Assembly (NCBI GenBank): GCA_013368375.1
Contig: JAACJP010000001.1
Span: 868,001-932,000, forward strand
Length of the DNA stretch: 64,000 nt
Direction of reading: 5' to 3'
Origin: Tricholomella constricta
Lineage: Eukaryota > Basidiomycota > Agaricomycetes > Agaricales > Lyophyllaceae
A model generated the notes under the pieces. The model saw only the letters and a program-made list of their open reading frames with translations. It was not told the origin of the DNA and ran no database searches. Shown here in pieces: positions 10,124 through 50,765 of the stretch (position 1 is its first letter; the number at the start of each line of letters is the position of its first letter). The translations under genes were made by a program, and so were the position numbers.

Positions 10124-10178
10124 ATTTTTTAAACACCCTTGCTTCAAGGGAACAACACTAAATTCTTAATTCCACAAC

Positions 10179-19091: not shown

Positions 19092-20127
19092 TGATAGAGC
19101 TAGAAGGCCTGTAGGTGCTGTACACAACAACAAAACAACTAACAACTATGGGGGGCGAGAAGTGTTAAAAGTTCCCAAACACGCGAGTGTGCAGGGTTTG
19201 AAAGTGGTGGTTCGGCGAAAGTAAAGACGATCCGACTTGTAATTAGTCGAACCGACGGCGGCGCAATAGAATACGATCGTTCACAGGTGGAACGGGTCGG
19301 CAACACGACTTTCGTGTTGGTTGTGCGACAACGAGACGAACGAGACGAATACGGAGAACTCACGGGTTCGGGCGACGGTTATGAGACGATGGAGACGGCG
19401 GTTACGAGGTTTACGACGGTGGCGACGGTTTATACGATGAGAACGATGCGGAGACGACAGAGACGACGGTTTTGAGCTATTAACTCTGAGAGTGAGGGAA
19501 AATACGGGCTGTAATTCACTGGGGCAAGTAGGTAATACATGGGTATGTTTTTATACAATACGACCGACTTGCCTCGCGCGAGCCGGCGAGGCAGGTGTTT
19601 TACTGGTTTATTTGGGGGAAGCGCCGCCAAGCTTGGTACCGCGCGACGCTTTTTAGAGAGTGTGGCGCTCTTTGGCTCGGCAAAGGGGCTTTTGATCGGC
19701 TCGAGGCGTCGGGTCGGATGTATGATCGGTGATGGCTTTGCGATCGGTAGTGGCTCTTGGGTGCGGAGCTCCGTGGTACGGCCGGATCCTTCCTGCGGCT
19801 AGCTAGGCAACGGTGTTTCCTAGGATTATTTCAAATCGGGTTTGGTTGTTGCCGGGTTGAGACCTTGGCATACAAACGTGCGCGGTCGTTGACAGGTTAT
19901 ACGGCGTTCCGTGCTCCGCGCGCCCAGAGAGGAGAACTGGCGTTCCAAGTTACTTTGTCTCTTGGTCGGTGCGTCGGTCGTTTGGTCGTATTGTCGGTCG
20001 GTCGGTCGTATTGTCGGTCGGTCGGTTTAGCGCTTTGGTCGCATTTGGGACCGTGTTCGTCGTGGCGCAACGGTTGATATCCGTAGAATGGGTTGGTTCA
20101 GTGTACAGCGTTGGACGGTGCTCATCA
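19092..20127 (-). repeat. 3' LTR of element C
   Basis: This 1036-bp copy matches 37084-38119 throughout; I see substitutions only at four sites. The polypurine tract abuts its inner end. Small open frames inside it are shared by all LTR copies and are not genes. Confidence 0.94.
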
Positions 20128-20143
20128 TCTCCTCCTTACTTGA
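20128..20143 (-). promoter_or_regulatory. Polypurine tract of element C
   Basis: On the minus strand the bases TCAAGTAAGGAGGAGA directly precede the LTR's TG. The identical 18-mer including TG occurs at the 3' LTR of element E (44314-44331) and inside pol at 32115-32132. Confidence 0.85.
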
Positions 20144-20247
20144 AATACCGACTGTCCTCAGTCGGTCCCGCGCGTTGGTCAGGGGGCGTTCTCCTTGGAA
20201 AAAGGGGCGGACATAGGAGCGAGTGGCGGTGCCGACGCGTTGGCGAC

Positions 20248-20257
20248 ATATATATAT
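20248..20257 (+). promoter_or_regulatory. TATA-like box of antisense cargo gene 1
   Basis: An alternating TATATATAT run lies about 35-40 bp before the ATG at 20288 and on the same strand as the cargo gene. A short 5' leader would follow. This is suggestive only. Confidence 0.4.
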
Positions 20258-20287: not shown

Positions 20288-21540
20288 ATGTCGGGACCTC
20301 CTGTCGATCTCCGTCGTATTCTCCGCAATTTGGGACGAGACTGGGAGGAATGGCAATCGCTGTCGGACGACTCGCCTCGTTACGAGCGTACTCGCGTGCT
20401 GCAATATTTGTTAAACGGCGTCGAAGTGCTTAGGTCACCAGCAGCTGAACCCTGGCGCTGGGCGTGGCGCGACGAAGAATATGCTTTGCTCGACGTATGG
20501 TCTTCGGTCGCGTCTGACCCTGAATGGTCCAGACGGTTCGCGGGGCTACAGCCGAGTGTAAGTTCGCTTCTTCGTTGGCTTGATCGTTCCCGAGGATTAA
20601 CGCGCTAGCTGGTAGTCTGACTACCCTCACCGACGGGCGGTCATTCGGGAGCCTCGCGCCGCCTCTGCTGGAGAACAGGCAGGGCCTGTCGTTCGGGATC
20701 GCATGTGTGCTTCCTCGGTTGGGGACGGGGACGAAGAAGAGTCTGTAGTCGAGATCTCCGGGGAGTCGGTATTGGCGGCGCAGCGGAGGCGACACGATTT
20801 GTGGCTGGAGCGTCTTGAGGAGTTTAAAGAGGAGTACCCGGAGCATTACACTCGTAGCGAAGCGGTAAGTCATCGGTTCTCGTGCAATCTTGTTCTTCCT
20901 CTCATTTGTTGGCTAGTGCGACCGTTGTGCGGGCTACGCTTTGGACTGTGTTCAGCGCAACGGGATTGACGCTTGTGCGGTTTGCGAGATTCAGTCGAAG
21001 CAATGTGAGACGAGTGAGGTGGGGTCGTTTCCGCCGGCTCCGCACCAGTTTGTGCCATGCTTAGTAGAGGGGCGCTCTTGCGACGCGTGCGCGCCACCTC
21101 CGTTGTTCGTCGAGGTCCGTTCGCCCGACCTGGCGAGAACTGCTCAGCGCCTTGTCGTGACTCGTTCTGCGGGTTCGGTGGACCGAGGCGTGGGTCTCCT
21201 CTATCAAGGTCCGGTGTTTCGCCCTGAGGACTTCCTCCGTATTTCGCGGTTCGGTCTTGCGGATATAGATCGGGCGCTATCGGCGCGCACCGTTTTCTTG
21301 CGTACTTTGGTCCAGGAAATTCAAGTCCTTGAATCGCGCCAAGAGATTATGTGTTCGTCGGCCCGTCAGCTTTACGAGCAGGTCGTGTCTACGTCGTCGG
21401 CCCTTGACTTGCTTCAGGCCCGGCGCGTCGAGTTAGTTGGTGCGTCTGTAATGGGTGCTCCGAGCGGTGGGGGTAGCGGTAGTGGAAGCGTTGTCGGTGG
21501 TGGCGTATGCGACGATGGTGGCGAGGGTTCGTCGTTTTGA
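20288..21540 (+). CDS. Antisense cargo gene 1 of element C: Zn2Cys6-cluster protein (380 aa)
   Basis: Three exons (20288-20557, 20616-20864, 20917-21540) on the strand opposite to the retrotransposon join in frame, all introns phase 0 with GT-AG ends. The first exon (270 nt) encodes a helical domain rich in Trp. The second is an acidic/basic linker with QRRRHDLWLERLEEFKEEYP. The third begins exactly at a cysteine cluster, C-x2-C-x6-C-x8-C-x2-C-x6-C (CDRC...CAVC...C), the spacing of a fungal Zn2Cys6 DNA-binding domain. The C-terminal half contains FGLADIDRALSARTVFLRTL and a predicted helix. It is a diverged paralogue of cargo gene 2. A nuclear DNA-binding regulator is the natural inference, but no target is known. 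Confidence 0.8.
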
Positions 21541-21756
21541 CTCTAGGTTTGTCGTGTTTTGTGGTCGGGTTGCGCTCATTATTGGTCGCGTATGCCGTAT
21601 ATACCTGTTTTGTTGTGCGGGCCCTAAAATTGGGTCGTTCTGTTATAATTCGAACTATTCGTTCTAGGTGGCGTAAGTCGGTTCTTCGTTTTGGTCGGTT
21701 CTTTTATTGGTGGCGTCGGTTGCTGGCGTCGGCCGCCGCTCAACCTGTAGGTCGTG

Positions 21757-21797
21757 TCTCCTCCTTACTTGAAATGCCGACTGCCCTCAGTCGGTCC
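21757..21797 (-). repeat. Internal copy of the polypurine-tract region in element C
   Basis: About 40 bp here match 20128-20168 with two substitutions, including 16 bases of the polypurine tract and the adjacent GACTG...CAGTC hairpin. It lies between the two cargo genes and suggests they arose by duplication of a unit [purine tract + antisense gene]. Confidence 0.8.
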
Positions 21798-21935
21798 GGA
21801 GACCGGTCGAGAAAATTCTAGAACTGGCGCGTGTGTGGCGTGAGATGGTGGTGGCGGTGCAACAGAATTTGACGGCGCGTCCTGGTTTGTTTAGAGTGAC
21901 TGTCCCTTTTTCGGTTCCCTCCCTTTTCAACCATC

Positions 21936-23801
21936 ATGGCCACCGTCGTGTCTGACTTCAAGCGCGTCCTCCGGTATCTGACCACCGACTACATTCGATG
22001 GTGTCAACTTCCCGACGACGCCACTCGCGAAGAGCGCTTCGAGGCGCTCGAGGACATACGGGACGGCGTGACCGCGCTTCGGAAACAAGAGGCGGGCCCC
22101 GGGCGTTTGGAATGGCGGGAGGAGCAGGAGGCGTTGTCCCAAATATGGGCACGCATCAAGGACGACCGGGAGTGGTCGGAAAAATTCGCGGATCTGGAGC
22201 CCGAGGTGCGTCCGTTTCTGACTTTTGGTATGTAGGTGACCGACTTGGTCTTGTGCGTTCTTGAGGACGAGTACACCCGCCGGCGCCGTGAACGACATCT
22301 TCAATCGGGCACATCTCGAGGCGCCGGAAATGTGCCACCGGTCGTATCTGGCGAACCGCCAGTCGAGCAGGGTCCCCGTCCGGATGTTGGCGACGTCGAA
22401 GTGCGCGACACGGAGTTGGCGGTGGAGGCGGAGAAGAGGCGCGGTAGTGTGGGCGCAATCCCGCCGCCGGTCGCGGGGGGGGCATCGTCCGGCGTTCCTG
22501 CGGCGCCGTCGCCCAAGGGGAAAGGCAAGTCCTCGCGGCCTCCCATTTTTGTGCCTCGTATGTCGGTCGGTGGCGGGTCGCGTGCTGGTAAAGACGCTGC
22601 GGCCGACGTGCGTATCTCATGCGATTTTGTCTTCTGTCGATTGCTTAATGTTTTTTGGACAGACTGCCCCGTCCGCTTCGCGATCGCTTCGTACGCGTGA
22701 GTCCGCCTTCCGATCGGGGCCTATCTTTAGCGCTGTGAGTGGTCTGCCCCTAACTAGCTTGGTAGGTGCAACGCCCGCTGCCACTGGGTCCGACGAGGTG
22801 ACGGCTTCGAGTCGGAAGCGCAAGCGCGACGTCGCGGATGACGGGGAAGGGTCGTTAGTGGAGGTCCCGGAGGCGGAGTCGGGGAAAGGCAAACGGAAGC
22901 GGCGCACGACCGACAAGTGGCTCGGGCGCCTCGAGGACTTCAAGAAGGAGTGCCCTCACCACTTGGTGCGCGATGTAGCGGTAGGTTATCGGTTGGGCTC
23001 GTGCGGTCGTCGGCGCTGACCCTTTTCTAGTGCGATCGTTGCGTGGACTCCGGCGTCGACTGCCTGCAGAAGCCTGGCGTCAGTCCTTGTGCGCTCTGCA
23101 AGATCCACGCCAAGAAGTGTGAGACGACGCGCGACGGCGTCCCCCTTGTCGTTCCGAGGGCCTCTGGTTCGCGATCGCGGCGCCGAAACATATCGCGCCC
23201 TATCGTCGAGGATGTCGAGGAGGAGAAGCCCGTCACTGCGCCCGCGCCCTCGCTGCACCGGTCCCCTCAGCCCTTCCTGGCGGATCCCCGGGAGCGCGAG
23301 CGCGAGCTGGCGGCGGCCACCCACCACCTTGCGATGATTCAGGTCGCCGGCTCTGCGGGCATGGGCGCGGGTTTTTTGCATCAGGGCGCTTTGCCTCAGG
23401 CGGAGGCCTTGCTCCGTAACGAGGACCTAGACGGTCTGGGGTACATGGCCTCGACCGCGATTATCGACAGCTTCGACCTCGCCGACGTGGACCGCGCGCT
23501 TTTCTCGCGCAACGCCTTTCTTCGGACCTTGGTTCAGCAAGCGCAGGTTCTGGAGTCCCAGCAGGAGATAACGCGCTGGTCGCTGCGACAGATTTACCAG
23601 CAAGTGGAAGGCACCGTGGACGCGCTGAGGCTGCTTCGGGAGCGGCGCTCGGAGTTGGTCGAGGAGGCGGCGGGCGAGTCCGACTCCAGTGAAGGGAGCG
23701 CGGTGAGTACCGATGACGAAGATGCCGAGGGCGACGGCGAGAGCGACGGAGTCGAGGAGGGCGGCGACGGGATCGAGGGTGGCGATGTCGTAATGGGGTG
23801 A
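21936..23801 (+). CDS. Antisense cargo gene 2 of element C: Zn2Cys6-cluster protein (566 aa)
   Basis: Four exons (21936-22205, 22266-22607, 22663-22980, 23031-23801) join in frame, all phase 0 with GT-AG introns of 50-60 nt. Exon 1 is exactly 270 nt, as in cargo gene 1 and the element E copy. Domains in order: N-terminal helical domain (about residues 1-90), disordered linker, basic segment KGKRKRRTTDKW (candidate nuclear localisation signal), C-x2-C-x6-C-x8-C-x2-C-x6-C cluster starting at exon 4, then a conserved C-terminal domain (DSFDLADVDRALFSRNAFLRT, RWSLRQIYQQVEG) and an acidic tail. The splice sites work only in the antisense transcript. The reading frame is intact although the host element is broken. 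Confidence 0.85.
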
Positions 23802-24154: not shown

Positions 24155-25129
24155 TCAGTTCTGCTCTTCTTCCGACTCCGAGTCGTCGCTTACGACTTCG
24201 GGTCGGTCTTCATTGTCGGTGATCGTCGTCGCCTCTAGTTCTCGGAGTCGTTTGGTGTCTATGTCCAGCGCGTTATCGGGTAGGAGAATATTATTTCGCG
24301 CGAAGTAGGGGGTGAGTCGGAACGCTGCTACAGGCCGGTGTAAGACGGTGCCATCCAATTCGCAGAGGATGTAGGCGCCTCCACGGTTGCGTGAGATCAC
24401 AACGAGCGGACCTAGGTATCTAGATCGCATTTTGCGGTTGAGCGACTTCTCGATTTTCGTGTTGCGCATGAGGATGAGGTCTCCGCGTTTAAAGTTATAG
24501 TCGCGCAAGGTTCTGGCGTGTTGAAGCTCAAAGCGAATCGCCGCTTGTCGTCGCGCCGCGTATACGTCTGAATGCAGTCGCTCTAGGTCGGTCGTTCGTT
24601 TTTGTAGGGCGATTGCGCGACGTGTCAAGAGGTCGGTGGAGGACAGTATTGAGTCGGGTGGCGGTTGGAGGTACGTGGCTTCGACGATATCGAGTGGCAG
24701 GAGGGGCTGCGTGCCTGTCGCAGCGTAGTAGGGGGAACATCCCATTCGTTTGCGGATTGTGACGCGTTCCGCCCAGAAAACGGAGTAGGCGGCTTGCGAC
24801 CATTTATTTTCGATTCCGTCGGCGGCTTTGAAAAGAGATTGCCGGACGTCGAAGTGGGATCGCTCGACTAGCCCGTTGGCTCTAGAGTTGTAACCTGAGA
24901 TCCGAATGTTGTGTATGTGGTATTTCTTTGTGAGGTGTTCGGCGGCTTTGATGAAGGCTGGGCCGTTGTCGGTTACGATTTCGCGCAGTCCGCCCCACCG
25001 GCAGATGATGTCTTCGTACATCCAATCGCCGAGGGTGCGACTGTTTTCCTTTCGGAGCGCGCGCCATTCAGGAAAGTGAATCAAGGAGCAACGACCTTGG
25101 ACAATGTATTTGAAACCATTCGACGGCGG
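24155..25129 (-). pseudogene. Element C integrase, C-terminal part (after element D)
   Basis: The minus-strand frame continues the integrase begun at 31527-31742: IHFPEWRALRKENS, then the catalytic Asp segment IVTDNGPAFIKAAEHLTKKY and SRANGLVERSHFDVRQSL with the last Glu of the DDE triad, then a GPLVVISRNRGGAYILCELDGT segment and an acidic tail ending EEEQN. The first catalytic Asp sits before the break (YIDTMHLP). Homology to the element E integrase shows that removing element D and one GGCGG copy restores continuity. Confidence 0.88.
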
Positions 25130-25633
25130 TGTTAGGGCAACCCTTACAGTGGAGCGCTATCGCACTGGCAAGGGGGAATCCGAAGTTATATTGATGTACA
25201 GTAACGAATGTAAGTAAGGCTTACCTGGCAAGGGGGAATCCGAAGAGAATAGTGTAAAGGATTCCCAAATGCCAGGGGGCCGACTATATACGAGTGTAGG
25301 ACGTGAGGGCCGGTCCTCCAGAGTGTACTGTACATGTAATAGTAACGAATGGTGTGCGGCGCGTGTATGGACACGTTCCCGACGCTGTCCGATCCTCGTG
25401 GCCCAGGGTACGGGCACGAGGCGGGGCAGCCGACGTCGGGATGTCGGGTGGTCGGGATCGGCGTCGGGCGCGCGCGGGGAGTGAGGGGAAGCGACAGGAA
25501 GTGAGTAAGTATGTACACCGACGCTTGGGTCGGAGCGTCGGGTCGGGATCGCGATCAGTCAGTCAGGGGCGAGCGCGTGAGTCGGGGAACGATCTGTGAG
25601 CGTCGGAGAGCGTGAACGAGAGTTCCCCTGACA
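25130..25633 (-). repeat. 3' LTR of element D
   Basis: This 504-bp LTR has TGTCAGGGG...CCTAACA ends in sense orientation. It is preceded on the minus strand by the purine tract complementary to 25634-25648. Confidence 0.95.
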
Positions 25634-28600
25634 TCACCCCCCCTTTTGAATCGCAACGGCTCGGTGCGGGGTGACGGTGGCGAAGACGGCGGGGGATAGA
25701 GTGAAGATGCCACGGATGTGGCGCGCAGCATCAGGATTGTCGCGGTGGAACTTGCGAACCAGGTCGGGTGCGGCGACGTTCTCCCGGGGCTCCCACGAAG
25801 CTTCTTCATAGCCGTAGCCTTTCCACAAGATCTTGTACTGAAGTTTCTTGCGGAAGATGCGACTGTCGAGGATTTTGTGGACTTCGTAGTGGGGTTCGTC
25901 ATCGATGATGTCTGGTGGCGGCGGAGGGTCGGACTGTCGACCTTCGATTGGGTCAGCGACGGCGGGGACAAGCTTTATGACGTGGAAGACTGGGTGGATG
26001 CGTTTCATGGACTGAGGCAGCAGGAGGCGGTATGCGAGCGGGCCAACTCGCCTTTGCACGACGAAAGGGCCAAGGTAGCGATGCGATAATTTCTTAGACG
26101 GTCGGGTCGTAGAAATGTCGGTCGCGTCCAAGTACACCTTGTCACCCGGCTGGTAGTCGGGTGTCGGGGCGTGTCGCTGATTGTAATACCGCTCCATGTC
26201 GTCTTTGGCCTTTGAAAGCGCCGCCTTGGCTTCCTCCTGTGCTTCCTTCATGCGCTCCACGAACTCGTCGGCCGACTCGTTCTTGGAAGCGCCCCGACGA
26301 GGCTCGAAGCCCATGCGCGGATGCCGACCAGTGTCGAGCAAGAAAGGGGTCTGCTGTGTCGCCGAATGTACATGGTTGTTGTAACTGAATTCGGCGTCGG
26401 GCAAGAGGTCCTCCCAGTCGTTCTGGCGCTCGTTGCAGAAGACCCGCAAGAACTGTTCCAGCTCCTGATTGACACGCTCGGTCTGTCCGTCGGTCTGCGG
26501 GTGGTACGCCGTCGAAGCCGACAGCTTGATACCCAGGAGTCGGTACAGTTCTCGCGTGAATTCGGCGACGAACTGTGGACCTCGATCGGAGACAAAGGCA
26601 TCTGGGAGACCGTGGAGCTTCCAGACGTGGCGACGGTAGAGGTTCGCGGCTCCCAAGGCCGAACAGGTCGTGTGCGATGCGATGAAATGCGCGCGCTTTC
26701 CGACCGAATCTACGACGTTCATGATCGCGTCGTGGCCATTGGACTCGGGGAGTTCGGTGATGAAGTCCACCGATACGACATTCCATCGGCCTTCGGGAAT
26801 TGGGAGCGGCTGCAGCTGTCCGACGGGGAGTTGGCGGCGGGGTTTTGTGCGCAAGCACATGTCGCAGGTGCTGGTGTATGAACCGATGAAGCGTGACATC
26901 TGGGGCCACCAGTAGTTGCGCGACACCAGCTCGAGCGTCTTCCAGCGACCCGGGTGACCGGCGACCTTGGAGTCATGATGCTGCTCCACAATGCGTCGGC
27001 GGAGGTCAGGAACGTTCGGGACATAGATCCGTCCACGGAACGTGAGCAGACCACCTTCCTCCCCCCACTCGCCAAAGCGTAGGGAGCGACCGGCAGTCTT
27101 GGATGCCTTGACCAGTTGTGCCGCTTTCGCGACCGCGTCCTCCTGTGCACCGTCGCGATTGCCCTTGCGGATCGCTTTCAGCACATCGTCTTCTTCTCCG
27201 ACCAGTGCCAGACCCTCGGTCGCGCGAATCGCGAAGAACTCGGGTTTGAGGAGCACAATGTCGGCATTGTCGCCACTTCCGTCGCCGTGATCAGCGCGAC
27301 GCGACAGGGCGTCGGGTTTGCCCATGCTGCGTCCCGGACGGTGGTGGAGGGTAAAGTCGAAGTTGGCAAGGTAGAGCGACCAGCGGGCTTGCCGCCGATT
27401 GAGTTTCTTCGCGGTGAGGAAGTACTCAAGGTTCTTGTGGTCGGTCAAGATCTCCACCTTGTGCTTTGCGCCTTCCACAAAATGTCGCCACTCCTCCAGA
27501 GACCGGATGATCGCCAGCATCTCCTTGTCGTGGATCTCGTAGTTCCGCTCGACTGCGTTCAAGCTCTTCGAGTAGAACGCGACCGGGTGCCACTTGCCAT
27601 CGGACGGCGACTCTTGCGACAGGACCGCGCCCGTCGCGAAGTCGGACGAGTCAGCTTCGATGCGGTACGGTCGGTCGTCGTCGGGGAATGCAAGCACCGG
27701 TCGCGACGTGATCGCAGACTTCAGGAGGTCAAAGGCCGACTGCTCCGACGCTTCCCAGCGCCAGGCAACGTCCTTGCCCGTCAAATCAAACAGGGGTCGG
27801 GCGTGGTGCGAGAAATCCTGGATGAACCGTCGGTAGAAATTGGTGAAGCCCAAGAACGCTTGCACCTCTTTCTTGTTCCTCGGCGCCGGCCACTCCGACA
27901 CTCCAGCGACCTTGACCGGATCCATTTCCGCTTGCCCGTGCGAGATGATCAGCCCAAGATACTCGACCTTGGTCTGTTCAAACTCGCATTTCTCGGGTTT
28001 TAGGAACAACTTATGTTCGCGGAGTCGGTCCAGCACGAGTCGCGCGACCCGACGGTGTTCCTCGAGAGTCTTGGTGTAAATCAAGATATCGTCGAGGTAC
28101 ACGCAAACAACACCCTCGGCGATCAGATCGCGGAAGATGTCATTCATCATGGTCTGGAATGTGGCGGGGCTGTTCGTGAGGCCGAAGAACATGACAAGCG
28201 GCTCGAAGAGACCGCGGTTCGTCCGAAACGCTGCCTTCCACTCGTCGCCTTCCTTGATCCGAACATTGTTGTACCCCCATCGGACGTCCAGCTTGGTGAA
28301 GTACCGCGCGCCGCGGAGGTTGTTCACCAGTTCGCTAATGAGCGGCAGTGGGTACCGGTTCTTCACCGTCAGCGCGTTGAGCGTCCGATAGTCCTGCACC
28401 AGCCGGAGCGCACCATCCTTCTTCTTGATGAAGAACACTGGCGAAGCCATGGGCGACTTCGACGGACGGATCCGACCCGACTCGAGGTTCTCCTTGAGGA
28501 ACGCATCGAGCTCGACTTGCTCCGCTGGCGACAGTGGGTAGACTTTGGTGCCGGACGGCGAAGCGCCTGGCTCCAACTCAATCGCGTGATCCCACTGTTT

Positions 28601-29678
28601 GCGATCGGGGAGTTCGTCGAACGCGACCTTGGAGAAAACGTCCTCAAAGTCGTGGAGGTGGGTCGGAACGGCGTCGCGGAATGACTTAGGCGCAGAGTTC
28701 GCGGCGTGCGCCTCAGCGAGTCGCTGCGATGTCGTTTGACTGGCGCGAATGTGCATTTCGGTCGGAGGGGGGTGGATCGCAGTCGCAAAGATGCGATCGC
28801 CGTTCAGGAAGGTCTCCACCAGGAAGTCGTCCGACTCTGGATCGGGTTCCTCCATGATCGGAGTGTAGGGGAGGAACTCGTCGGTGTCGGAGTCGTCTTC
28901 GACGTAGGGGCAGGTCGGGGCTCGCAGGTCGGGCTCGACTGTCGGGATGCCTTCCGCCCGACAAGCCCGAATGGCGGCTCGCAGCTTGGTGCGTGAACGA
29001 CGCTCCTCCTTGACTTCAACCTTGCAGGTGTCGCAACGTGTCGGCGCTCTACTCATTTTCACCTTTCCCGTTGCCCAATCAATGTCGGGGTTGTGGTCTC
29101 GGAGCCAGGTGAATCCGAGAATGAGATCCTGCTTTCCAATACCCGCGACCGCGAACAGAACGCGCTCGGAGTGACCGTCGTAACGTAAGACTGCGTCCAC
29201 GACGTATTCAATGGCACCCGCCTCATTAGGGGTTCCGTCAACATTGTAGGCACGTGTCGGGCGATTCAGCCGTCGCGTCTTCAGCTTGTGCTTTTCAACG
29301 AAGGCAGTGTTGATGAAGCAGGCCGATGCCCCGCTGTCAACGAGGGCAGCGAGCGAATGCGTCTCTTGGGTGTCGGTGGTCTCGAGCTCGACCTTGAGCG
29401 ACAGGGATAAGGAGTCGGGGGAGGCGGCGATCACGAAGCGACGGGGCAGTCGCTTTTCCCAGCGCGGTAGTCCGCGACGCGACGGTACAGTCGGCTCGGT
29501 CGGAGCGACCGAAGGAGATGGCGTTTGGTCAGGAGAGGATTGTACGTCTTCGTCGATTGGTTCACCCGTAGAAGTAGCAGCAATATTAAGTATACTGGGG
29601 TACTCTACAGATAGGGGGGCGAACCGATTACGACTAGACAACGGGGGCGTACTTTTCACCCGTTGTGCGACTAAAAAT
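25634..29678 (-). CDS. pol: Element D Pol polyprotein (protease, RT, RNase H, integrase, chromodomain)
   Basis: The frame is open from the end of gag to the 3' LTR, about 1345 codons. Domains in order: aspartic protease (LAALVDSGASACF, near residue 105; ILGFTWL), RT (about 405-570; catalytic YLDD in VCVYLDDILIY), RNase H (about 640-760; RIEADSSDFATGAVLSQ, DHKNLEYFLT), integrase with His2Cys2 zinc finger (HPGRWKT...CDMCLRTK), DDE core (VSVDFITELP, VSDRGPQFVAEF, NQELEQF) and a C-terminal chromodomain (YEVHKILDSR, YKILWKGYGYEEASWEP). No upstream ATG fits; the frame is -1 relative to gag and overlaps its end, so it is probably made as a Gag-Pol fusion by frameshifting. Chromodomains of this class direct integration to marked chromatin. 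Confidence 0.95.
29671..29678 (-). promoter_or_regulatory. Candidate -1 frameshift site of element D (five T before TAG)
   Basis: The gag frame ends GAT TTT TAG. A slip of one base back on the T run lets TTT re-pair with TTT and continue as TTA GTC into the open pol frame. It is not a classic X XXY YYZ heptamer, so the mechanism is inferred only from frame and context. Confidence 0.45.
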
Positions 29679-30891
29679 CCTCTTCCGTGGCCAAGGCGGT
29701 CGGGTCGGCCGACTCGGGAGTCGGGTCAGCTGGGATCGCATCCTTGCGCGCCAGTAGCTGCATGATCAGCTCATCCAGTTCCTCTGGCATGATGTGGCGC
29801 AGGTCAAAGCGCTTTGGGCAGTCGCGCCAGAAGTGCCCCGGCTGCTTGCATCGACGACAGGTGTCGTCCTGAACAGGACGTCCGCGGAGCCGGTCGATGT
29901 CCATAGGGACACCTGGGGGAAGAGACGGCGTCACGGGCGTGCTGAGAGAGTGCGCCGGTGCCGACACACGAACGGGAGCGGTCGGTGGGGCAGTGGTTCG
30001 CCATCGGAGCATGGGCGCGACCACAGGCATCGGAATGGGGGCAGTCGGGCGACTCGCAGTCGGAACTGTCGGAGCCGACCGACGGTGGAAGTCCTCCTCG
30101 GTCCTCATGATGAAGTCCTGGGAGCGGGCAATCGCTAGCCAGTCCTCAATCTTGGAGTCGTCGGGCCGACCCGTGGTGATGCTCCCAAGCCTCCTTGAGA
30201 GCTTCGGGTCCATGCCCCGACGGAATTTGAGGACCAGATGGCGGCCGTCTGGGTAGTCGGCCTTGATCCACAGCGCCTTGAACGAGTCAATGTACTCGTC
30301 GATGGTGCGCCCATTCTGGAAGTACGCTGTCGACTCAAGGGTGAGCGCAGCGTCGGCGACTTCGTCGAACAGGAAGAACTCCTTTTCGAAGTTCGACGCG
30401 AAGTCCTTCCAGGTCGGGAATGCGCGCTTTACCGACCCATACTGAAAGACCCGACCGACGAAGTCGGCGGCGCGACCGTGTTGCATGTATGACAACACCC
30501 AGCTGATTCGGGCGTGGTCGTCGGCGAACTGTCCGACGCTCAGGGAGAAGTAGAGCTGGCACGCGTTCCAGAAGGCGCGGCCGCCCGATCGAGCGCCGTC
30601 GTACACGGGAGGGGGCGACGGCCGAATGTGCGATCCCGATCGCGGAAGGGGAGGGGACGTCGGCAGGGGCTGCGCCGGCGTCGCGGGGGTCGTAGGTGCT
30701 GCTGGGGAGGCAGCGGAGGGGTTCCCCAAAACGATGGTATCTAAAAGAGCGGCGATGCGGTCCATGGTGGCCGAGTTGGTGGTGTTGGATTGTGAGAGAG
30801 CCGACATTGCGGTTTCAAGGCTCACCAGTCGTTCCTCTGGCGTGAGCGCAGCAGGAGACGGAGGCGTGTCAAATTCACCGAAGTCGGACAT
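29671..30891 (-). CDS. gag: Element D Gag
   Basis: This 406-codon frame starts at an ATG (MSDFGEFDTPPSP). A retrotransposon gag domain lies at about residues 105-245 (RAFWNACQLYFSLS, FPTWKDFASNFEKEF, RTIDEYIDSFKALW), followed by a CCHC zinc knuckle CRRCKQPGHFWRDC near residue 345. The last codons are GAG GAT TTT TAG, with the pol frame one base back. It forms the virus-like particle and packages RNA. Confidence 0.93.
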   Translation of the reverse strand: MSDFGEFDTPPSPAALTPEERLVSLETAMSALSQSNTTNSATMDRIAALLDTIVLGNPSAASPAAPTTPATPAQPLPTSPPLPRSGSHIRPSPPPVYDGARSGGRAFWNACQLYFSLSVGQFADDHARISWVLSYMQHGRAADFVGRVFQYGSVKRAFPTWKDFASNFEKEFFLFDEVADAALTLESTAYFQNGRTIDEYIDSFKALWIKADYPDGRHLVLKFRRGMDPKLSRRLGSITTGRPDDSKIEDWLAIARSQDFIMRTEEDFHRRSAPTVPTASRPTAPIPMPVVAPMLRWRTTAPPTAPVRVSAPAHSLSTPVTPSLPPGVPMDIDRLRGRPVQDDTCRRCKQPGHFWRDCPKRFDLRHIMPEELDELIMQLLARKDAIPADPTPESADPTALATEEDF

Positions 30892-31000
30892 CTCGAGACG
30901 GGACTGGGCGACGATCGGAGCAGGCGCGCGCTGGACGGGTTGCGTGTAGCAGACACGTGTTTCGGCGCGGAGGCTGATCGGTCGGTTTCGTCGGGTCTCC

Positions 31001-31017
31001 GGTTTACACTATTCTGC
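31001..31017 (-). promoter_or_regulatory. Self-priming primer-binding site of element D
   Basis: Directly after the 5' LTR the minus strand reads GC then AGAATAGTGTAAA (31015-31003). These 13 bases are exactly complementary to TTTACACTATTCT in the same LTR (31146-31134). A TATATA box at 31178-31173 lies about 30 nt before that segment, so it would be the 5' end of the transcript. That is the arrangement known from Tf1-type self-primed elements. Confidence 0.75.
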
Positions 31018-31521
31018 TGTTAGGGCAACCCTTACAGTGGAGCGCTATCGCACTGGCAAGGGGGAATCCGAAGTTATATTGATGTACAGTAACGAATGTA
31101 AGTAAGGCTTACCTGGCAAGGGGGAATCCGAAGAGAATAGTGTAAAGGATTCCCAAATGCCAGGGGGCCGACTATATACGAGTGTAGGACGTGAGGGCCG
31201 GTCCTCCAGAGTGTACTGTACATGTAATAGTAACGAATGGTGTGCGGCGCGTGTATGGACACGTTCCCGACGCTGTCCGATCCTCGTGGCCCAGGGTACG
31301 GGCACGAGGCGGGGCAGCCGACGTCGGGATGTCGGGTGGTCGGGATCGGCGTCGGGCGCGCGCGGGGAGTGAGGGGAAGCGACAGGAAGTGAGTAAGTAT
31401 GTACACCGACGCTTGGGTCGGAGCGTCGGGTCGGGATCGCGATCGGTCAGTCAGGGGCGAGCGCGTGAGTCGGGGAACGATCTGTGAGCGTCGGAGAGCA
31501 TGAACGAGAGTTCCCCTGACA
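31018..31521 (-). repeat. 5' LTR of element D
   Basis: This 504-bp LTR has a TATATA box at 31178-31173 and predicted transcript start near 31146, giving U3 of about 375 bp and R-U5 of about 129 bp. Confidence 0.95.
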
Positions 31522-31526
31522 GGCGG

Positions 31527-34316
31527 TAGGTGCATAGTGTCGATGTACATTTTTGCAAACAGTGGCGCGGGTGTCGCAACGACCGGGGGGATCAGGACCT
31601 TGGTTGTTTGCTGGATCTGGCATATGTGACATGTCTGTACGAACCACACGACGTCGGCCCGAACATTAGGCCACCAGAAGCGTTCGAGCAAGGTTGCGCG
31701 TGTCGCGTAGAAGCGCTTATGTCCGAGGTTGTCGTGGACGGATCACAGAATCTCTAATCGTGCATTGGGGCGGGCGACTAGTTTATGTGCGCCTTGGCTA
31801 TCTCTTCTCCAGAGTCGTGTTCCGTCTAGGAAGAACCCGGTGGCGTATCGAATGAAGGTGGCGTACTGATCGTCGGACATGCCTTCTGGCCGTTCGAGGT
31901 TGGTCAACCATTGTCTAACCGCATCTATGCGTTGGTCTTGGGCTTTAGCGGCGTCGGTCCTGGGTACGTCGTCGTATGACATGTCGGTCGAATTCGCATT
32001 TGGGTCGGTTATTCCTGTATCGTCGTCGGTACGGATTCTGGGTTGTCGTGGGGAATCGGTTGCGAGTTCGTGAGTCGTTGAGTCTGGTGGTACCGCGTCC
32101 GTGTATACTGCCCCCATCTCCTCCTTACTTGAGACCTGAGCCATAGCGAAGATCTGGCATATGTGTAATGGCGACGGCGGCTGTGGCAGCGGTTGAATAA
32201 TGTGCATGAGTCCTTGCATTCGGTCGACCCAATCTTCGAAGTCGGCTTCTTCTGCGTCGTAGTTGTCGGCTGGATCGTCGGGTTGTCGTGGGCGCCGGGA
32301 CAAACCGTCGGGTCCATGGAACGTGCCTTTAACATGGACAAGTTCGAAGTGGAACATGAGGACAGATACGATCCACCTGTTTATGGAAGCTGACGGCTGG
32401 ATGTCGGGGTTGGAGAGCATTCCTTTAATGTAGCGCGCGTCGACTTCGACGACCAAGTTGCGGACGCCTATAACGTACAGGCGTAAAGCGCCAAGCGCCC
32501 GAAATAGGCCGTAAAATTCGAGTTTTGGTTGAGAGAACCGTGATTCGCGGTCGTTCAGTGTAATGGAACCGAACCGATTGTATCTGCGTCGTTTCCGATC
32601 GACGGGGTCGGCTTGACAGAGGTAGAATCCGACTGCTATGTGTGAAGTGTCGACGGCCAGGATGACGGGGTCGTCCGAGGCGTAGTCGATGGGTACGAGG
32701 GGTTTCGCTTCTGCGATCGCCTCGACGATGTCACGCTGTGCTGCGATCTGGTCGGGGCCGAATTCGAAGACTGCGTCCTTGCGGGTTAGTTTTACGAGGT
32801 GGTGTGCGCGATGAGCAAAGTTTTTGACGAATATCCTTAGTACTCCGACTGTTCCTAAAAACGCGCGTAACTCTGATAGGGTGGCGCACGACTTCCAATT
32901 ACGCAGTAAAGCGAGTCGGTCCGCGTCGGGTATGCGACCCTTGGGCGTGCAGACGTGTCCGAGGACTTTAAATTGTGGTGCGCATAAAATCAGCTTCTTG
33001 CCGGAGAAGGTGCCGCCGCAGTACTTCATGCGCTGGAGGATTCGGTTGACGTTGTTGAAGAACTCCCAGATCGCGAATCGCACATCGGCGTTGTCGGGGT
33101 GTGTTTTCGGCAATCCTGTGTCCGGGTCGGGGTACCAAGTTGCTGGTCCCTTTATAGCAGCGTCGTCGATATAAGGTAGTGTATAGTCCGGGATCTCCGG
33201 TTGTAGGATGTGAGTGACGTCGTCGTGGAAGATTGGAACGGAGTTGGTCCAGCCCATAGGTAAGGTGACTAGGCGTAACGCGCCGAAAGGTGTTTGGAAA
33301 GTGGTAAGGTCGCGCGACGATGGTGCGATTAGCCGTTCGTCGTAGCCGACAAACAGGTCCAACATTGCGCCACAAATGCGACCGGCGAATTGTTCGGCGA
33401 CATGGTCTGGTATCGGAGTGACCCCCGAGTGTCGGATAGTTACTCGGTTGAGCGGTTCGAGGCTGTGGACGAGGCGGAACTTGCCATTTTTCTTTAGAGT
33501 GCAAAACCAACGCGATCGGTAGCTGGAGTTGGACGGTTCGTAAACGCCAGCGGCGAGTTTAGTTTTGATAATGTCGCAAACTTCATCGTAGATGCCAGGC
33601 GGTATGGGGATATTTCGTTCGATCCAGGGTGTGTGTGCGACGACCGGGATATCGATAGGGGGAAAGAAATCCGATCGAAAACTACCGCGTTCGGAGTCGT
33701 CCCATGCGAAAGCGAGATTCTGCTTACACATGAGGTCGTGCATAATTGCTCGTTCGGAGGGCGTTAAGAAGTCTGGGTGTTCACGGTCTAAGTCGTCTTT
33801 TCGCTCTAGAGTGTAGCGGCCGGTGGGTTGGAAAGGTGGCGGGTTGGGGAGCAGAGTCGGCATGTTGGCGAGAGGGTCGCCCAATATTTTGCGCTCGATG
33901 CGGAAGTGGTCGGGACAACTTGCTATGATCAATCGCACTTTTTGCGCTACTGGTTTGTACTTCTTTTTGGTTTGTACGCCTTTGATTTTCACCACGAAGG
34001 CGTCGGTGGCGGCGTTGGTCAGGGATTGGGTGTGGCGTCCACTATGGCGCTCGTTGTGCGGTAAAATAGTGCAGAGGGTCGTTCGTTTTTGAGGGTTAGA
34101 GTTGGTATTATCGGATTGGTCGGCGATTGCTGGTGCGGTTAGTTCGGATGCCGCGACGTAGAGTGAGGCTAGTTGCGCGTCGTAGGTGGCGTCGCTATTA
34201 AATTCGGTCGGTAGTTCACAGAAAGAAAGGACAGTCGGGGTATAGCTTAGTGGGTCGTACTCGAGGAGGAGTGCAAGATCGCCGTGATCTCGACTTATTT
34301 CCTCGAGAGTATACGA
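31527..34316 (-). pseudogene. pol: Element C Pol, RT-RNase H and N-terminal integrase
   Basis: The frame is open from the frameshift site (34316) to a TGA at 31740-31742, then continues in the same frame until element D. Motifs: RT with SLEPLNRVTIRHSG, QTPFGALRLVTLPMGWTNS and catalytic YIDD (TLPYIDDAAIKG); RNase H with LAVDTSHIAVGFYL and VKGTFHGPDGLSRRP; integrase zinc region RFYATRATLLERFWWP and CHICQIQ, followed by the first catalytic Asp in MYIDTMHLP. The premature TGA replaces the Arg codon found at this point in element E. The N-terminal 100 residues before the RT are not similar to anything I know. Confidence 0.9.
32115..32132 (-). promoter_or_regulatory. Candidate central polypurine tract in element C pol
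   Basis: The 18-mer TCAAGTAAGGAGGAGATG is read in frame as SSKEEM between RNase H and integrase. It is identical to the 18 bases spanning the polypurine tract and the first two LTR bases at the 3' LTRs of elements C and E. Confidence 0.7.
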
Positions 34317-36598
34317 AAATTTACGTCGGTCTTGGGGCGGCGACGTTGTCCGCGCGCGAAGGTCGGTATCGCGATGACCTCTCGAGTGTTCGGGTCGGTG
34401 ATGGTTATGATCGTATCGTCGGAGGATCTCGTTTTCACGTTAGAGCAAGTAAGTACGTCGAACGGGCGGCCGAGGAGTATATCGTATGCGGGATTGCGAA
34501 TGACGTGCATTTGGAGGTAGAGCGTGACCTCTCCTATCGTACAAGGTACGTTTCGTGCTAGACCGAGCGACGGGTCGGTTGTTCCATTCGCTGATTGCAT
34601 CTGCAGCACTATAGTTGGGTCGTATTTGACCCCTAGTCCATGGCAAACTTCTTCCGACATGGCTATGATCTGGCACCCGCTGTCGACGATGCTTTCTATC
34701 TGTTCTCTCGCGTCGACCATTATCATGATCGACCTGAGTGCGTGCGATTCCATTGCGACGATCAGTCGGTCCGGATGCTCGCCGGGTAGTAGTGTCTGGT
34801 AATACGTGTCGTAGATGTCGCCGGTGACTAGCGCTCCGGGCGGTGGCGTCGCATTGTCGCTGTTGGATTCGCAAGGTAGTGCGTCGAGTTCCTCAATGAA
34901 CGCCGACGTGGGGACTTCTTGGTATACCGTTGTGAGGTTGCCGGCGACGATACGCTTCGGTGTATTAGCTTCCCTAAACTTTCCGCGAACCTCTGGCGCT
35001 ACCCCGCAGAGTTCTCGAACTGTGACCGGTATGGTGGCGTCGAGTGCGCGTTCGAATAGAGTCGTTGATTTGGTCAGATCTGTAATGGGCGCTTGTGTGC
35101 GGTACGCGCTGTCGGCTTTCGCCTTCTCCGTGGCGGCTAAGTTTCGCGTGGTAGGGGGGATGTATCGGTTCTCAGGAATGTTAGAGAAAGGGTGTACTGG
35201 AGTCTGGTCGTGGGCATTGCCTGTGGCGTCGGTCGTGGTACTGGGGATCAGAGGTATGTTGGACGGCGGCGGGGGAGCCTTGGCCTGGCTTTTCGTCGCG
35301 TCCGAGACGGGCTGCGACGCGGGCGCTGATTTGTTGACTGGTGCGATCCTTGGTTGGTCGGCGTCTTGAACAGTTTCGACCGTGACGGGTCGCTTTTGCG
35401 GTGCGCGGCTAATAAGTTCTACGCCGTCGAACACCTCTTTCCTTGCGCGCAGGGTGTTGAGTTCTCGTTCTAACACGATCATGCGATCCTCGATTTTCAA
35501 GTTATGGTCGGTGACATCGTTAAACTGTAGTATTTCCAACATCATGCTCTCGGTCGGGTTCGCGTTCGCTGATAGCTGTCCTGTCGCCATTTGGCCGGGG
35601 TTGCGTCTGTGCCACTCGTCTAACTTGTCTTTTATGTATCGACCTGGAGTTCCCGCCGGTATGCGCGCGCCGCTTGGTAGGCCTATCTTGTTGTCGTCGG
35701 TTCGTCGGCAGCGTCCTTCGGTCGCGTATGTTTGATGTATGGGACAGTTAGGAATATAATGTCCTTCACCACCGCAGAAGTGGCAGTTGTCATTAGGTGA
35801 CTGATTCGGTCGGCCGCCGTCGCCTCCTTTGTCTTGTCCTAAGCGTTGGATATGTTGTTCCAACAGGTTGATTCTTTCGTAGAGCTCTTCCAACTTGAGG
35901 GGCTGTCCCGTGTTAGGCGACTTGGTCGCGCCCGTTAACGACCCGCTTGGCGCGATCGTAATTTGTGGGGGCGCGCCCGATGGCGCTTCCTGCCGTTGGC
36001 CGGCGTTTGTTCCGTGGAGGATATGTTCAGCCGCAGCGCGAACGGTTTCCGTGGCGTAGGGGTCGTCGGGATGGTGGTTCGGGTTTAGGATCTCGAGCCT
36101 GCGATGGATCTTTGACCATAGATCGGACTGGAACGCGCGACGGAATTGGCGGTCGCGTTCGTTTATCGAAAGTCGGTTTTTGCTGACAAGGAACTGGGTA
36201 ACAGAAAGGAACTGTCGGTAATATTCCCCGAGGTCACTATTCGACTGGATCCCGAGTCGGTGTCGTTCCCTGATCAGGTAGTCGAGGTCGGCCATTGAAT
36301 ACTTTCTTTCTTCGCTTGCGCCTGGGTAAAGCGCCATTATCGCTTTTCGCCAGTCGTCGTATGTGGTACCGACTGCGAATTCGTCAAGTTGCTCCCACAG
36401 ATCCGCGGTATCGATGTCGGTGTATCGCGTAGTGTGCGTTTTCTTTTCTTGCTCATCTACGACGTTACACTCGATGAAGAGATGATTTAAGTCCGAAAAA
36501 TATCGGCGCAGTTCACGCGCGCGTTCGGGTACGAACGTCGGCGCCGAGCTTTGTCCGCGTGCGGGCATCGGCTTTATAATGATTGGTGGTTGTGCCAT
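34295..36598 (-). CDS. gag: Element C Gag-protease
   Basis: The longest open stretch reaches into the LTR, but the first ATG is at 36598 (MAQPPIIIKP), giving about 767 aa; element H has the same start at 63488. A gag domain (RARELRRYFSDLNHLFIEC, DLWEQLDEF) is followed by a CCHC knuckle CHFCGGEGHYIPNC near residue 280, a long disordered stretch, and a retropepsin-like segment near residue 665 (SIVDSGCQIIAMSE, DILLGRPFDVL). The protease is thus encoded in the gag frame, as in some Ty3/Gypsy lineages. The frame ends at 34295, overlapping the -1 pol frame. Confidence 0.9.
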   Translation of the reverse strand: MAQPPIIIKPMPARGQSSAPTFVPERARELRRYFSDLNHLFIECNVVDEQEKKTHTTRYTDIDTADLWEQLDEFAVGTTYDDWRKAIMALYPGASEERKYSMADLDYLIRERHRLGIQSNSDLGEYYRQFLSVTQFLVSKNRLSINERDRQFRRAFQSDLWSKIHRRLEILNPNHHPDDPYATETVRAAAEHILHGTNAGQRQEAPSGAPPQITIAPSGSLTGATKSPNTGQPLKLEELYERINLLEQHIQRLGQDKGGDGGRPNQSPNDNCHFCGGEGHYIPNCPIHQTYATEGRCRRTDDNKIGLPSGARIPAGTPGRYIKDKLDEWHRRNPGQMATGQLSANANPTESMMLEILQFNDVTDHNLKIEDRMIVLERELNTLRARKEVFDGVELISRAPQKRPVTVETVQDADQPRIAPVNKSAPASQPVSDATKSQAKAPPPPSNIPLIPSTTTDATGNAHDQTPVHPFSNIPENRYIPPTTRNLAATEKAKADSAYRTQAPITDLTKSTTLFERALDATIPVTVRELCGVAPEVRGKFREANTPKRIVAGNLTTVYQEVPTSAFIEELDALPCESNSDNATPPPGALVTGDIYDTYYQTLLPGEHPDRLIVAMESHALRSIMIMVDAREQIESIVDSGCQIIAMSEEVCHGLGVKYDPTIVLQMQSANGTTDPSLGLARNVPCTIGEVTLYLQMHVIRNPAYDILLGRPFDVLTCSNVKTRSSDDTIITITDPNTREVIAIPTFARGQRRRPKTDVNFRILSRK
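34316..34322 (-). promoter_or_regulatory. Slippery heptamer A AAT TTT, candidate -1 frameshift site of element C
   Basis: In the gag frame the codons are GTA AAT TTT CGT. The heptamer A AAT TTT fits X XXY YYZ exactly in phase. The -1 frame entered there is open through RT and RNase H. It lies seven codons before the gag stop. Confidence 0.7.
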
Positions 36599-37083: not shown

Positions 37084-38119
37084 TGATAGAGCTAGAAGGC
37101 CTGTAGGTGCTGTACACAACAACAAAACAACTAACAACTATGGGGGGCGAGAAGTGTTAAAAGTTCCCAAACACGCGAGTGTGCAGGGTTTGAAAGTGGT
37201 GGTTCGGCGAAAGTAAAGACGATCCGACTTGTAATTAGTCGAACCGACGGCGGCGCGATAGAATACGATCGTTCACAGGTGGAACGGGTCGGCAACACGA
37301 CTTTCGTGTTGGTTGTGCGACAACGAGACGAACGAGACGAATACGGAGAACTCACGGGTTCGGGCGACGGTTATGAGACGACGGAGACGGCGGTTACGAG
37401 GTTTACGACGGTGGCGACGGTTTATACGATGAGAACGATGCGGAGACGACAGAGACGACGGTTTTGAGCTATTAACTCTGAGAGTGAGGGAAAATACGGG
37501 CTGTAATTCACTGGGGCAAGTAGGTAATACATGGGTCTGTTTTTATACAATACGACCGACTTGCCTCGCGCGAGCCGGCGAGGCAGGTGTTTTACTGGTT
37601 TATTTGGGGGAAGCGCCGCCAAGCTTGGTACCGCGCGACGCTTTTTAGAGAGTGTGGCGCTCTTTGGCTCGGCAAAGGGGCTTTTGATCGGCTCGAGGCG
37701 TCGGGTCGGATGTATGATCGGTGATGGCTTTGCGATCGGTAGTGGCTCTTGGGTGCGGAGCTCCGTGGTACGGCCGGATCCTTCCTGCGGCTAGCTAGGC
37801 AACGGCGTTTCCTAGGATTATTTCAAATCGGGTTTGGTTGTTGCCGGGTTGAGACCTTGGCATACAAACGTGCGCGGTCGTTGACAGGTTATACGGCGTT
37901 CCGTGCTCCGCGCGCCCAGAGAGGAGAACTGGCGTTCCAAGTTACTTTGTCTCTTGGTCGGTGCGTCGGTCGTTTGGTCGTATTGTCGGTCGGTCGGTCG
38001 TATTGTCGGTCGGTCGGTTTAGCGCTTTGGTCGCATTTGGGACCGTGTTCGTCGTGGCGCAACGGTTGATATCCGTAGAATGGGTTGGTTCAGTGTACAG
38101 CGTTGGACGGTGCTCATCA
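37084..38119 (-). repeat. 5' LTR of element C
   Basis: This 1036-bp LTR is followed on its outer side by GCGC, matching the bases left of the 3' LTR. Confidence 0.94.
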
Positions 38120-44146: not shown

Positions 44147-44313
44147 GGCGGTGAAGAGAAAGGAGGGAACCGAAGAAGGAAGAAGGCATTAAAAAGAAAT
44201 TGGATGCGCCATTAAATTCCGTTGCACCGCCACCGCCTCCCACGCCACACCCGCGTCAAGGCTAGATCCTCCGGACCGAATAAACACCGGACCGACTGAG
44301 GACAGTCAGTGTT

Positions 44314-44855: not shown

Positions 44856-45048
44856 TGGAGTGTCGCTACGCGGCACTCTGGGCCATTAGAATGTGAGAGG
44901 GCGACGTTGTTTGGTGTTGTTTGGCAGCAGCTTCGGCAGCTTAGTCATAGCATTACTCTTTTGGACATTTCGATACAGAATAATCATCTCATTCTGCCGT
45001 CTGCGCTCTCAACTAAGTCAGGTCGAGGGATCAACTTAGCCATCTCCA
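44856..45048 (+). repeat. 5' LTR of element F
   Basis: 193 bp, identical by eye to the 3' copy; TGGAG/CTCCA ends are perfect inverted repeats. Confidence 0.95.
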
Positions 45049-45389
45049 TCTGGTGACGACAGCGATTCAGCCTCATTTTAAAGCAACAAGTAATCGAAGT
45101 TTATTTTTTAAAGCTCAAAGTCCTCGAAGAAAAAACCCGAAGCAAAGAATTCGCGATCAAAGGAAGAAAAGACAACTCCCTCGAGCTGGCCCATCGAACA
45201 CAGTTTAGAATCAACGGTAGATTCGCCTCTCGAAGACCAGTCAGTCCGTTACCCCCCTCGAGTGCTCCATCTAGTTCTGCAGCATCACCACAACCGGACT
45301 CCTTGGGCTTCGGATCGCACCGCTCAACACCGTTCACATCACCGGCACCACAGATAAACCCACAGCAAGCGTTCCTAGACCCGTCAGAA

Positions 45390-46604: not shown

Positions 46605-46606
46605 GC

Positions 46607-50753: not shown

Positions 50754-50765
50754 AGGGGGGGCACA

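What the first reader, a model, noticed from the sequence alone, without database searches (positions are those of the whole stretch)
20288..23801. LTR retrotransposon carrying spliced antisense genes for Zn2Cys6-cluster proteins
Seen: between pol and the 3' LTR of element C, two genes lie on the opposite strand, with 3 and 4 exons. Every intron is phase 0 with GT-AG ends, the first exon is exactly 270 nt in both, and the last exon opens exactly at C-x2-C-x6-C-x8-C-x2-C-x6-C. Both proteins are well diverged from each other yet both frames are intact. Element E carries a third homologue (42294-44146) at the same place. Known: that cysteine spacing is the fungal Zn2Cys6 DNA-binding signature, and splice sites in antisense orientation are not removed during retrotransposition. 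Inference: the elements encode their own transcription regulator, possibly acting on their 1-kb LTRs or on host genes, and selection maintains it. I am not aware of such cargo being described.
Basis: partly seen in the sequence, partly recalled or inferred. Interest (0 to 1): 0.93.

Follow-up and report, generated by a model that had tools for sequence, protein, structure and literature searches.

The report
Retrotransposon with swappable antisense regulator genes
A family of fungal jumping genes carries, on the opposite strand, a pair of selected and probably spliced genes for zinc-cluster-like, transcription-factor-like proteins, and copies of the element with near-identical replication genes can carry very different versions of the pair.

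Summary
Two antisense genes lie between pol and the 3' LTR of element C (20288-21540, 21936-23801), with open frames, GT-AG phase-0 introns, 270-nt first exons and last exons opening at C-x2-C-x6-C-x8-C-x2-C-x6-C. Element E's copy appears frame-broken. Of 83 integrase copies counted genome-wide, 73 have gene 2 and 63 both. Selection is purifying (omega 0.17 gene 2, 0.30-0.39 gene 1); exact presence/absence of an intron supports splicing. Foldseek's only three PDB matches, at non-significant E, are Gal4, Leu3 and 1cld, zinc-cluster factors; PF00172 stays below cut-off. Best reading: element-encoded, probably self-regulating nuclear regulators (0.6); action on LTRs untested. Antisense accessory ORFs at this place are known in plants; brtn in Botrytis is another antisense extra gene. 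A zinc-cluster pair was not seen in ten paper searches.

The parts
19092..20127 (-). 3' LTR of element C (the element reads on the minus strand)
   Evidence: 99.6% identical over 1036 bp to 37084-38119
37084..38119 (-). 5' LTR of element C
20128..20168 (+). box 1: PPT complement CTCCTCCTTACTTGAAA plus palindrome CCGACTGTCCTCAGTCGG (20148-20165)
   Evidence: directly follows the LTR
20248..20257 (+). TATATATA stretch 31-40 bp before the ATG of gene 1, conserved in the relatives aligned
   Evidence: by eye
20288..20557 (+). gene 1 exon 1 (270 nt)
   Evidence: 270 open nt then GT in 10 of 12 fetched relatives, the start pattern not matching in L040 and L047
20616..20864 (+). gene 1 exon 2
20917..21540 (+). 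gene 1 exon 3 with stop; cysteine cluster 20917-21006
   Evidence: omega 0.30
21757..21797 (+). box 2, same PPT-like stretch and palindrome (21777-21794)
21936..22205 (+). gene 2 exon 1 (270 nt)
22266..22607 (+). gene 2 exon 2
22663..22980 (+). gene 2 exon 3 with the basic KRKR-like stretch; the intron before it (22608-22662) is present or absent among relatives
23031..23801 (+). gene 2 exon 4 with stop: cysteine cluster 23031-23120, long predicted helix, acidic tail
24155..25129 (-). C-terminal integrase part of element C's pol; identity of recombinant copies falls just 3' of its stop
31743..34439 (-). RNaseH-bearing part of pol of element C, parted from the integrase end by a nested element
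   Evidence: PF17917, PF17919
42294..44146 (-). gene-2-type copy in element E, apparently frame-broken; cysteine cluster 42957-43046
44292..44309 (-). palindrome (one mismatch) before the gene of element E

Best explanation
The element is a Ty3/gypsy-type LTR retrotransposon that encodes its own pair of paralogous nuclear regulators on the opposite strand. SHOWN: two antisense genes in fixed order (3' LTR, box 1, gene 1, box 2, gene 2, pol end), kept by purifying selection, with the same six-cysteine spacing in very divergent versions, and each preceded by a strongly conserved promoter-like box with a palindrome. SHOWN: the coding part is far more divergent, at silent sites too, than the pol beside it, and has been exchanged between elements in at least some cases. 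INFERRED: the genes are transcribed from their own box promoters beside the 3' LTR and spliced; the proteins enter the nucleus (basic stretch), pair through the long C-terminal helix, bind the palindrome (CCG/CGG ends) before both genes through the zinc cluster, and act through the acidic tail, so that the pair regulates itself. A further effect on the element's sense transcription or silencing is the likely payoff but is not shown. Exchange probably happens by template switching between co-packaged RNAs.
For: Family trait: gene 2 next to 73 of 83 integrase copies, both genes at 63, neither listed at 8, of which two were looked at and one holds a gene-2 tail beside a nested insertion. Omega: gene 2 exon 4 median 0.166 in 107 unsaturated pairs against integrase 0.056; gene 2 exon 1 0.164; gene 1 exon 3 0.30, exon 1 0.39. 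Cysteines: the motif was found in 62 of 72 loci and 9 of 9 further, more distant loci, always with the same spacing although the patterns allowed other loops; six cysteines invariant in 13 rows down to 34% identity. Model of exon 4: residues 1-33 lie on the 1cld domain, rmsd 1.9 A over 31 residues; Foldseek's three matches at E <= 10 are Gal4, Leu3 and 1cld. Palindrome: 109 exact genomic sites, control 0; box kept where the protein is 43-45% identical. Splicing: intron 2 of gene 2 is seamlessly absent in L017 and L020. Exchange: C37 and C12 copies are 97-100% identical to C in the integrase windows and fall to about 50-80% within about 150 bp of the pol stop; 13 of the 30 pairs with integrase pS under 0.15 have gene 2 pS over 0.4; integrase data reject gene-2 class D as one clade, p-AU 8e-7; gene 1 and gene 2 divergence are uncorrelated, rho -0.08 over 66 pairs.
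Against: No RNA, binding or localisation data. PF00172 below cut-off: 1 of 13 rows listed it at 9.0 bits, 1 of 3 distant copies at 14.4, full-length proteins none. Profile-profile probability 4.6%, only the second half aligned; PDB profile search found only PPR1 at E = 2.3. Structure models are weak (pLDDT 52 and 62), the 35-residue model found nothing, and the Foldseek E-values are 4.9-8.4. C's own proteins lack the basic residues of the first cluster helix seen in the genome's ordinary zinc-cluster hits. No relatives among predicted proteins. The box also holds the PPT, so its conservation may serve reverse transcription. Exchange is not rampant: on the integrase tree class D needs only 2 changes (shuffled mean 8.3), the rejected clade turns largely on L037, whose integrase is partial, and gene 2 and integrase divergence correlate weakly (rho 0.34; 0.28). 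An invariant palindrome sits oddly with the idea that variation tunes DNA specificity.
Confidence: 0.6

Rival explanations
1. The proteins are DNA-binding anti-silencing or counter-defence factors that free the element from host chromatin or small-RNA silencing; their divergence reflects an arms race with the host or competition between elements, as for plant VANC proteins.
For: Integrase is 87-100% identical in 82 of 83 copies while gene 2 falls to 30-45% in many; cassette exchange; VANC proteins are TE-encoded, bind sequence motifs and diverge with their targets (PMC5735166 abstract).
Against: The candidate target here, the palindrome, hardly varies. No methylation or silencing data. Omega stays well below 1 over the last exon.
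Confidence: 0.2
2. The box is a replication element (a second polypurine tract plus a hairpin in the genomic RNA) and the proteins are structural or nucleic-acid-handling accessory factors, not transcription regulators.
For: CTCCTCCTTACTTGAAA is the complement of the PPT beside the LTR and recurs before gene 2; 96 exact sites in the genome. The spacer of the palindrome is purine-only on the sense strand in the 50 sites listed.
Against: The box, a GTGGCGGTGC stretch and, for gene 1, a TATATATA stretch sit at promoter distance before the ATGs. The few arm changes seen (L018, L020, L044, L084, E) are not matched by a change on the other arm, though two would leave a G-U pair in the antisense RNA. 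The fold matches are to transcription factors.
Confidence: 0.12
3. Antisense transcription itself is the function (dsRNA, or interference with the sense transcript); the proteins matter little.
For: The genes lie wholly antisense to the genomic RNA; a dsRNA role for antisense transcripts is proposed for plant elements (PMC7264820 passages).
Against: Purifying selection fits the protein frame best (0.17; complementary frame 0.30, others 1.55-2.03), and cysteines are kept at 30-36% identity.
Confidence: 0.04
4. Recently captured host genes carried as passengers.
For: Gene capture by retrotransposons is known (PMC7264820 abstract and passages).
Against: Same place and order in 63 of 83 copies and deep divergence between versions. 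No separate host gene stood out in the capped list, but matches away from pol were not checked one by one.
Confidence: 0.04

Closest known systems
Antisense accessory ORFs (aORF-3R) of plant LTR retrotransposons: Grande1 gene23, RIRE2, Retand TRP28, PvRetro13
   Same: Antisense to gag-pol, between pol and 3' LTR, family-wide, own upstream promoter (Grande), nuclear or possibly DNA-binding product; regulatory role proposed (PMC7264820 passages and section 7; PMC11963269 passages)
   Different: Plants; other domains (TRP28, SMC-like); neither paper's text holds the word intron, and PMC11963269 not the word zinc; no two-gene exchanged cassette in the passages read
brtn, antisense gene of Boty-like elements of Botrytis cinerea
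   Same: Antisense extra gene in a fungal LTR element (title of Zhao et al. 2011, seen only in reference lists; mention in PMC8365987)
   Different: Its product, place and structure were not seen here; ascomycete host (recalled)
Fungal Zn2Cys6 transcription factors (Gal4, Leu3, LAC9, PPR1)
   Same: Cysteine spacing, two short helices in the model of exon 4, long helix for possible pairing, acidic region
   Different: Below the PF00172 cut-off; cluster in mid-protein at an exon start; first-helix basic residues missing in most classes seen; encoded by a retrotransposon
HTLV-1 HBZ
   Same: Antisense retroviral gene beside the 3' LTR acting as a transcription regulator (function recalled; start of the abstract of PMC10186651 in the listing gives antisense genes under promoters within the 3' LTR)
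   Different: bZIP protein, single gene, animal virus (recalled)
VANC proteins of Arabidopsis VANDAL transposons
   Same: TE-encoded, sequence-specific, diverging protein aimed at TEs (PMC5735166 abstract)
   Different: DNA transposon, plant, different protein; anti-silencing shown there, nothing shown here

Membership tests
Zn2Cys6 (PF00172) binuclear cluster proteins | Six cysteines as C-x2-C-x6-C-x5-12-C-x2-C-x6-8-C (spacing recalled) | tested here: met
   62 of 72 loci (the rest have broken frames, lack the start of the exon or have no gene listed), 9 of 9 distant loci, alignments
Zn2Cys6 (PF00172) binuclear cluster proteins | Score above the Pfam gathering cut-off (21 bits) | tested here: not met
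   best 14.4 bits, residues 1-32 on profile 3-32; 9.0 bits for the window's gene 2 exon 4; none for the full-length proteins
Zn2Cys6 (PF00172) binuclear cluster proteins | Cluster fold: two short helices around the metal site | tested here: inconclusive
Zn2Cys6 (PF00172) binuclear cluster proteins | Binds CGG-containing DNA | not testable with these tools
   candidate CCG..CGG palindrome before both genes
Antisense accessory ORF of LTR retrotransposons (aORF-3R type) | Between pol and 3' LTR, antisense, in most copies of the family | tested here: met
   73 of 83 integrase copies with gene 2, 75 with either gene
Antisense accessory ORF of LTR retrotransposons (aORF-3R type) | Transcribed from an own antisense promoter | not testable with these tools
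   conserved box, GTGGCGGTGC and TATATATA stretches only
Ty3/gypsy LTR retrotransposon | Two LTRs and RT-RNaseH before integrase | tested here: met
   LTRs; RNaseH domains above cut-off upstream of an integrase-like end (rve only at E 0.07, PF00078 and a gag family not listed for C, zinc knuckle E 0.06); pol relatives carry PF17919, PF17917 and mostly PF17921
VANC-like anti-silencing factors | Loss of DNA methylation on the own family | not testable with these tools
   none

The most novel reading that the evidence does not exclude
The antisense pair is an exchangeable compatibility module of an LTR retrotransposon, comparable in logic to phage immunity regions: each version sets which elements, or which host silencing state, a copy can work with, and recombination puts different versions on the same replicating backbone, so that the divergence is maintained by selection against common versions.
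Probability: 0.2. Interest if true: 0.93.

Novelty: new variant of a known kind. Interest (0 to 1): 0.76.

Why it matters
LTR retrotransposons are usually seen as gag-pol machines driven by host factors. Here a fungal family carries what look like its own paired transcription-factor-like proteins, with introns, promoter-like boxes and a candidate operator, in versions that differ far more than the pol beside them. The function of antisense accessory ORFs is described as undetermined in the 2020 review consulted here (passages and section 7); this family has many natural variants, a defined candidate site and a recognisable cysteine motif, so the question becomes testable. It would also mean that some fungal zinc-cluster-like gene models may belong to transposons.

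Tried and rejected
Pfam, PDB-sequence and profile-profile searches did not place the proteins above cut-off. Two protein searches found no relative (7995 candidates scored; 7996), while pol gave 1660, the named ones among the best 120 being Sphagnurus paluster and Meripilus lineatus; distribution in other species stays open, as candidates must share 5-residue words and few annotated fungal proteins may be held. A viral-contig scan gave 135 pattern matches and no relative. The 35-residue structure model gave no Foldseek match. LTR half-site idea: GTCGG 14 in C's LTR against 3.8 expected, but 7 in E's LTR and GTCGGTC only 1 there; kept as weak. Counting: of 114 integrase matches, 24 were left out (14 short or secondary fragments, 10 at 37% identity or less); of the 90 kept, 7 at 47-51% had no gene match nearby, and 83 are the denominator. 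Gene 1 was accepted at 1.5-9.5 kb, so a neighbour's gene can be counted, as may be the case at C37:152274. Match lists were cut by the tool. Of the 8 copies with neither gene listed, two were looked at: L095 holds a gene-2 tail beside a nested insertion, L096 shows nothing similar. In dN/dS work only loci with a last exon of at least 235 residues and a found integrase were used (41 loci; 28 distinct); the trees used 25 of them. The motif count uses a pattern with fixed spacing except the third loop, so it cannot show copies with other spacing; one search used a looser one.
Full report
WHAT IS THERE. Element C runs on the minus strand with LTRs at 19092-20127 (3') and 37084-38119 (5'), 99.6% identical over 1036 bp; GCGC stands at both outer flanks. 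Its pol is split by a nested element with terminal repeats that begin at 25130 and 31018. Between the pol end (integrase part 24155-25129) and the 3' LTR lie two + strand genes. Gene 1 has exons 20288-20557, 20616-20864, 20917-21540; gene 2 has exons 21936-22205, 22266-22607, 22663-22980, 23031-23801. Introns are GT-AG and phase 0. The last exons open exactly at the six-cysteine motif and are 41% identical.

IT IS A FAMILY TRAIT. The last exon of gene 2 has 198 matches in the 44-Mb own genome. Of 114 integrase matches, 24 were left out as short or secondary fragments or distant, and 7 at 47-51% identity were set apart; of the remaining 83 copies (75% identity or more), 73 have gene 2 within 2.5 kb 3' of pol on the other strand, 65 have gene 1 within 1.5-9.5 kb, 63 have both and 75 have either (73 follows from the printed 65, 63 and 75). 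The 7 relatives at 47-51% have no listed match nearby. Of the 8 with neither listed, one (L095) shows a gene-2 tail beside a nested insertion and one (L096) shows nothing; six were not examined.

SELECTION AND SPLICING. Nei-Gojobori omega in unsaturated pairs: gene 2 exon 4 median 0.166 (107 pairs, range 0.10-0.33), integrase 0.056; gene 2 exon 1 0.164, gene 1 exon 3 0.30, gene 1 exon 1 0.39. In the other frames of exon 4 the value is 1.55-2.03, and 0.30 in the complementary frame that shares third positions. Exon 1 is 270 open nt followed by GT in 10 of 12 fetched gene 1 relatives and in 12 of 15 gene 2 copies tried. Intron 2 of gene 2 is present in some relatives and absent in others, clearest in L017 and L020, where the exon-exon junction is seamless (by eye). 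Gene 1 intron 1 has a TACTAAC-like branch site in relatives.

THE BOX. Each gene is preceded by a 41-bp box, TCTCCTCCTTACTTGAAATNCCGACTGNNNNCAGTCGGTCC-like, about 120-180 bp before the ATG; beside the LTR it contains the complement of the polypurine tract, and before gene 2 it recurs inside the element. The palindrome has 109 exact sites in the genome and 141 with up to one mismatch, against 0 and 2 for the reversed control; the 17-nt PPT-like stretch has 96 exact sites. In L084 and L085 the box stays nearly unchanged although the protein is only 43-45% identical. Gene 1 has a conserved TATATATA stretch between box and ATG. The CCG..CGG ends suit a zinc-cluster dimer site (general knowledge, not tested); a replication role is the main rival for the box.

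THE CASSETTE IS DIVERGENT AND AT TIMES EXCHANGED. Integrase is 87-100% identical in 82 of the 83 copies, while gene 2 falls to 30-45% in many of them; silent-site divergence differs too: against C, integrase dS is mostly about 0.3-0.5 where gene 2 dS is 1.2-1.9 in the distant classes. Elements on C37 and C12 match C at 97-100% in the integrase windows and drop to about 50-80% within about 150 bp of the pol stop; gene 1 is then at about 80% and the LTR at about 94%. Of 30 pairs with integrase pS under 0.15, 13 have gene 2 pS over 0.4. Integrase DNA rejects the gene-2 class D as one clade (p-AU 8e-7, quick trees), but this turns largely on L037, whose integrase is partial, and the class labels are otherwise clustered on the integrase tree (class D: 2 changes, shuffled mean 8.3); gene 2 and integrase divergence correlate weakly (rho 0.34 over 378 pairs). 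Gene 1 and gene 2 divergence are uncorrelated over 66 pairs of 12 elements (rho -0.08). So modules are exchanged at least now and then, most simply by template switching (inference).

MECHANISM AND NOVELTY. I commit to element-encoded, probably self-regulating nuclear regulators (0.6), with anti-silencing as the main functional rival. The place and orientation are known from plant aORF-3R genes (PMC7264820: passages and section 7; PMC11963269: passages), and brtn of Botrytis is an antisense extra gene in a fungal element (reference-list title; PMC8365987 passages). VANC proteins are the nearest functional analogue (PMC5735166, abstract and outline). The ten answered paper searches (two of them returned nothing at all), judged by titles and starts of abstracts, listed nothing on a zinc-cluster gene pair in a retrotransposon; the library lacks most subscription journals. 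The host is probably an agaricomycete fungus, judged only by the named species among pol's best matches.

Noticed in passing
about 25130-31317: A nested gypsy-type element with a chromodomain (PF00385) and terminal repeats that are 100% identical over the 300 bp reported splits the pol of element C.
   Followed up: partly
44856-50958: A second nested element with identical 193-bp terminal repeats sits inside the LTR of element E; the parts of that LTR on its two sides match the other LTR region at 93.4% and 99.5%, which hints at conversion or a tandem arrangement.
   Followed up: no
58322-64000: Further LTRs and internal sequence of the same family as C in the other orientation, running off the window; a cassette lies at G000:C1:937949-940840 beyond the window end.
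   Followed up: partly
L028 (element E) and 44292-44309: Element E has one box and a gene-2-type gene only, as if recombination between box 1 and box 2 had removed gene 1.
   Followed up: partly
L023 (G000:C22:438583-442350): Upstream of gene 2's third exon the locus holds pol-like sequence instead of exons 1-2 (by eye).
   Followed up: no
19965-20027: Array of GTCGG/GTCGGTC repeats in C's LTR, resembling half of the palindrome; weak in E's LTR.
   Followed up: partly
10340-10555: Two tandem 108-bp units, 84% alike, inside an open frame at 10170-11735.
   Followed up: no
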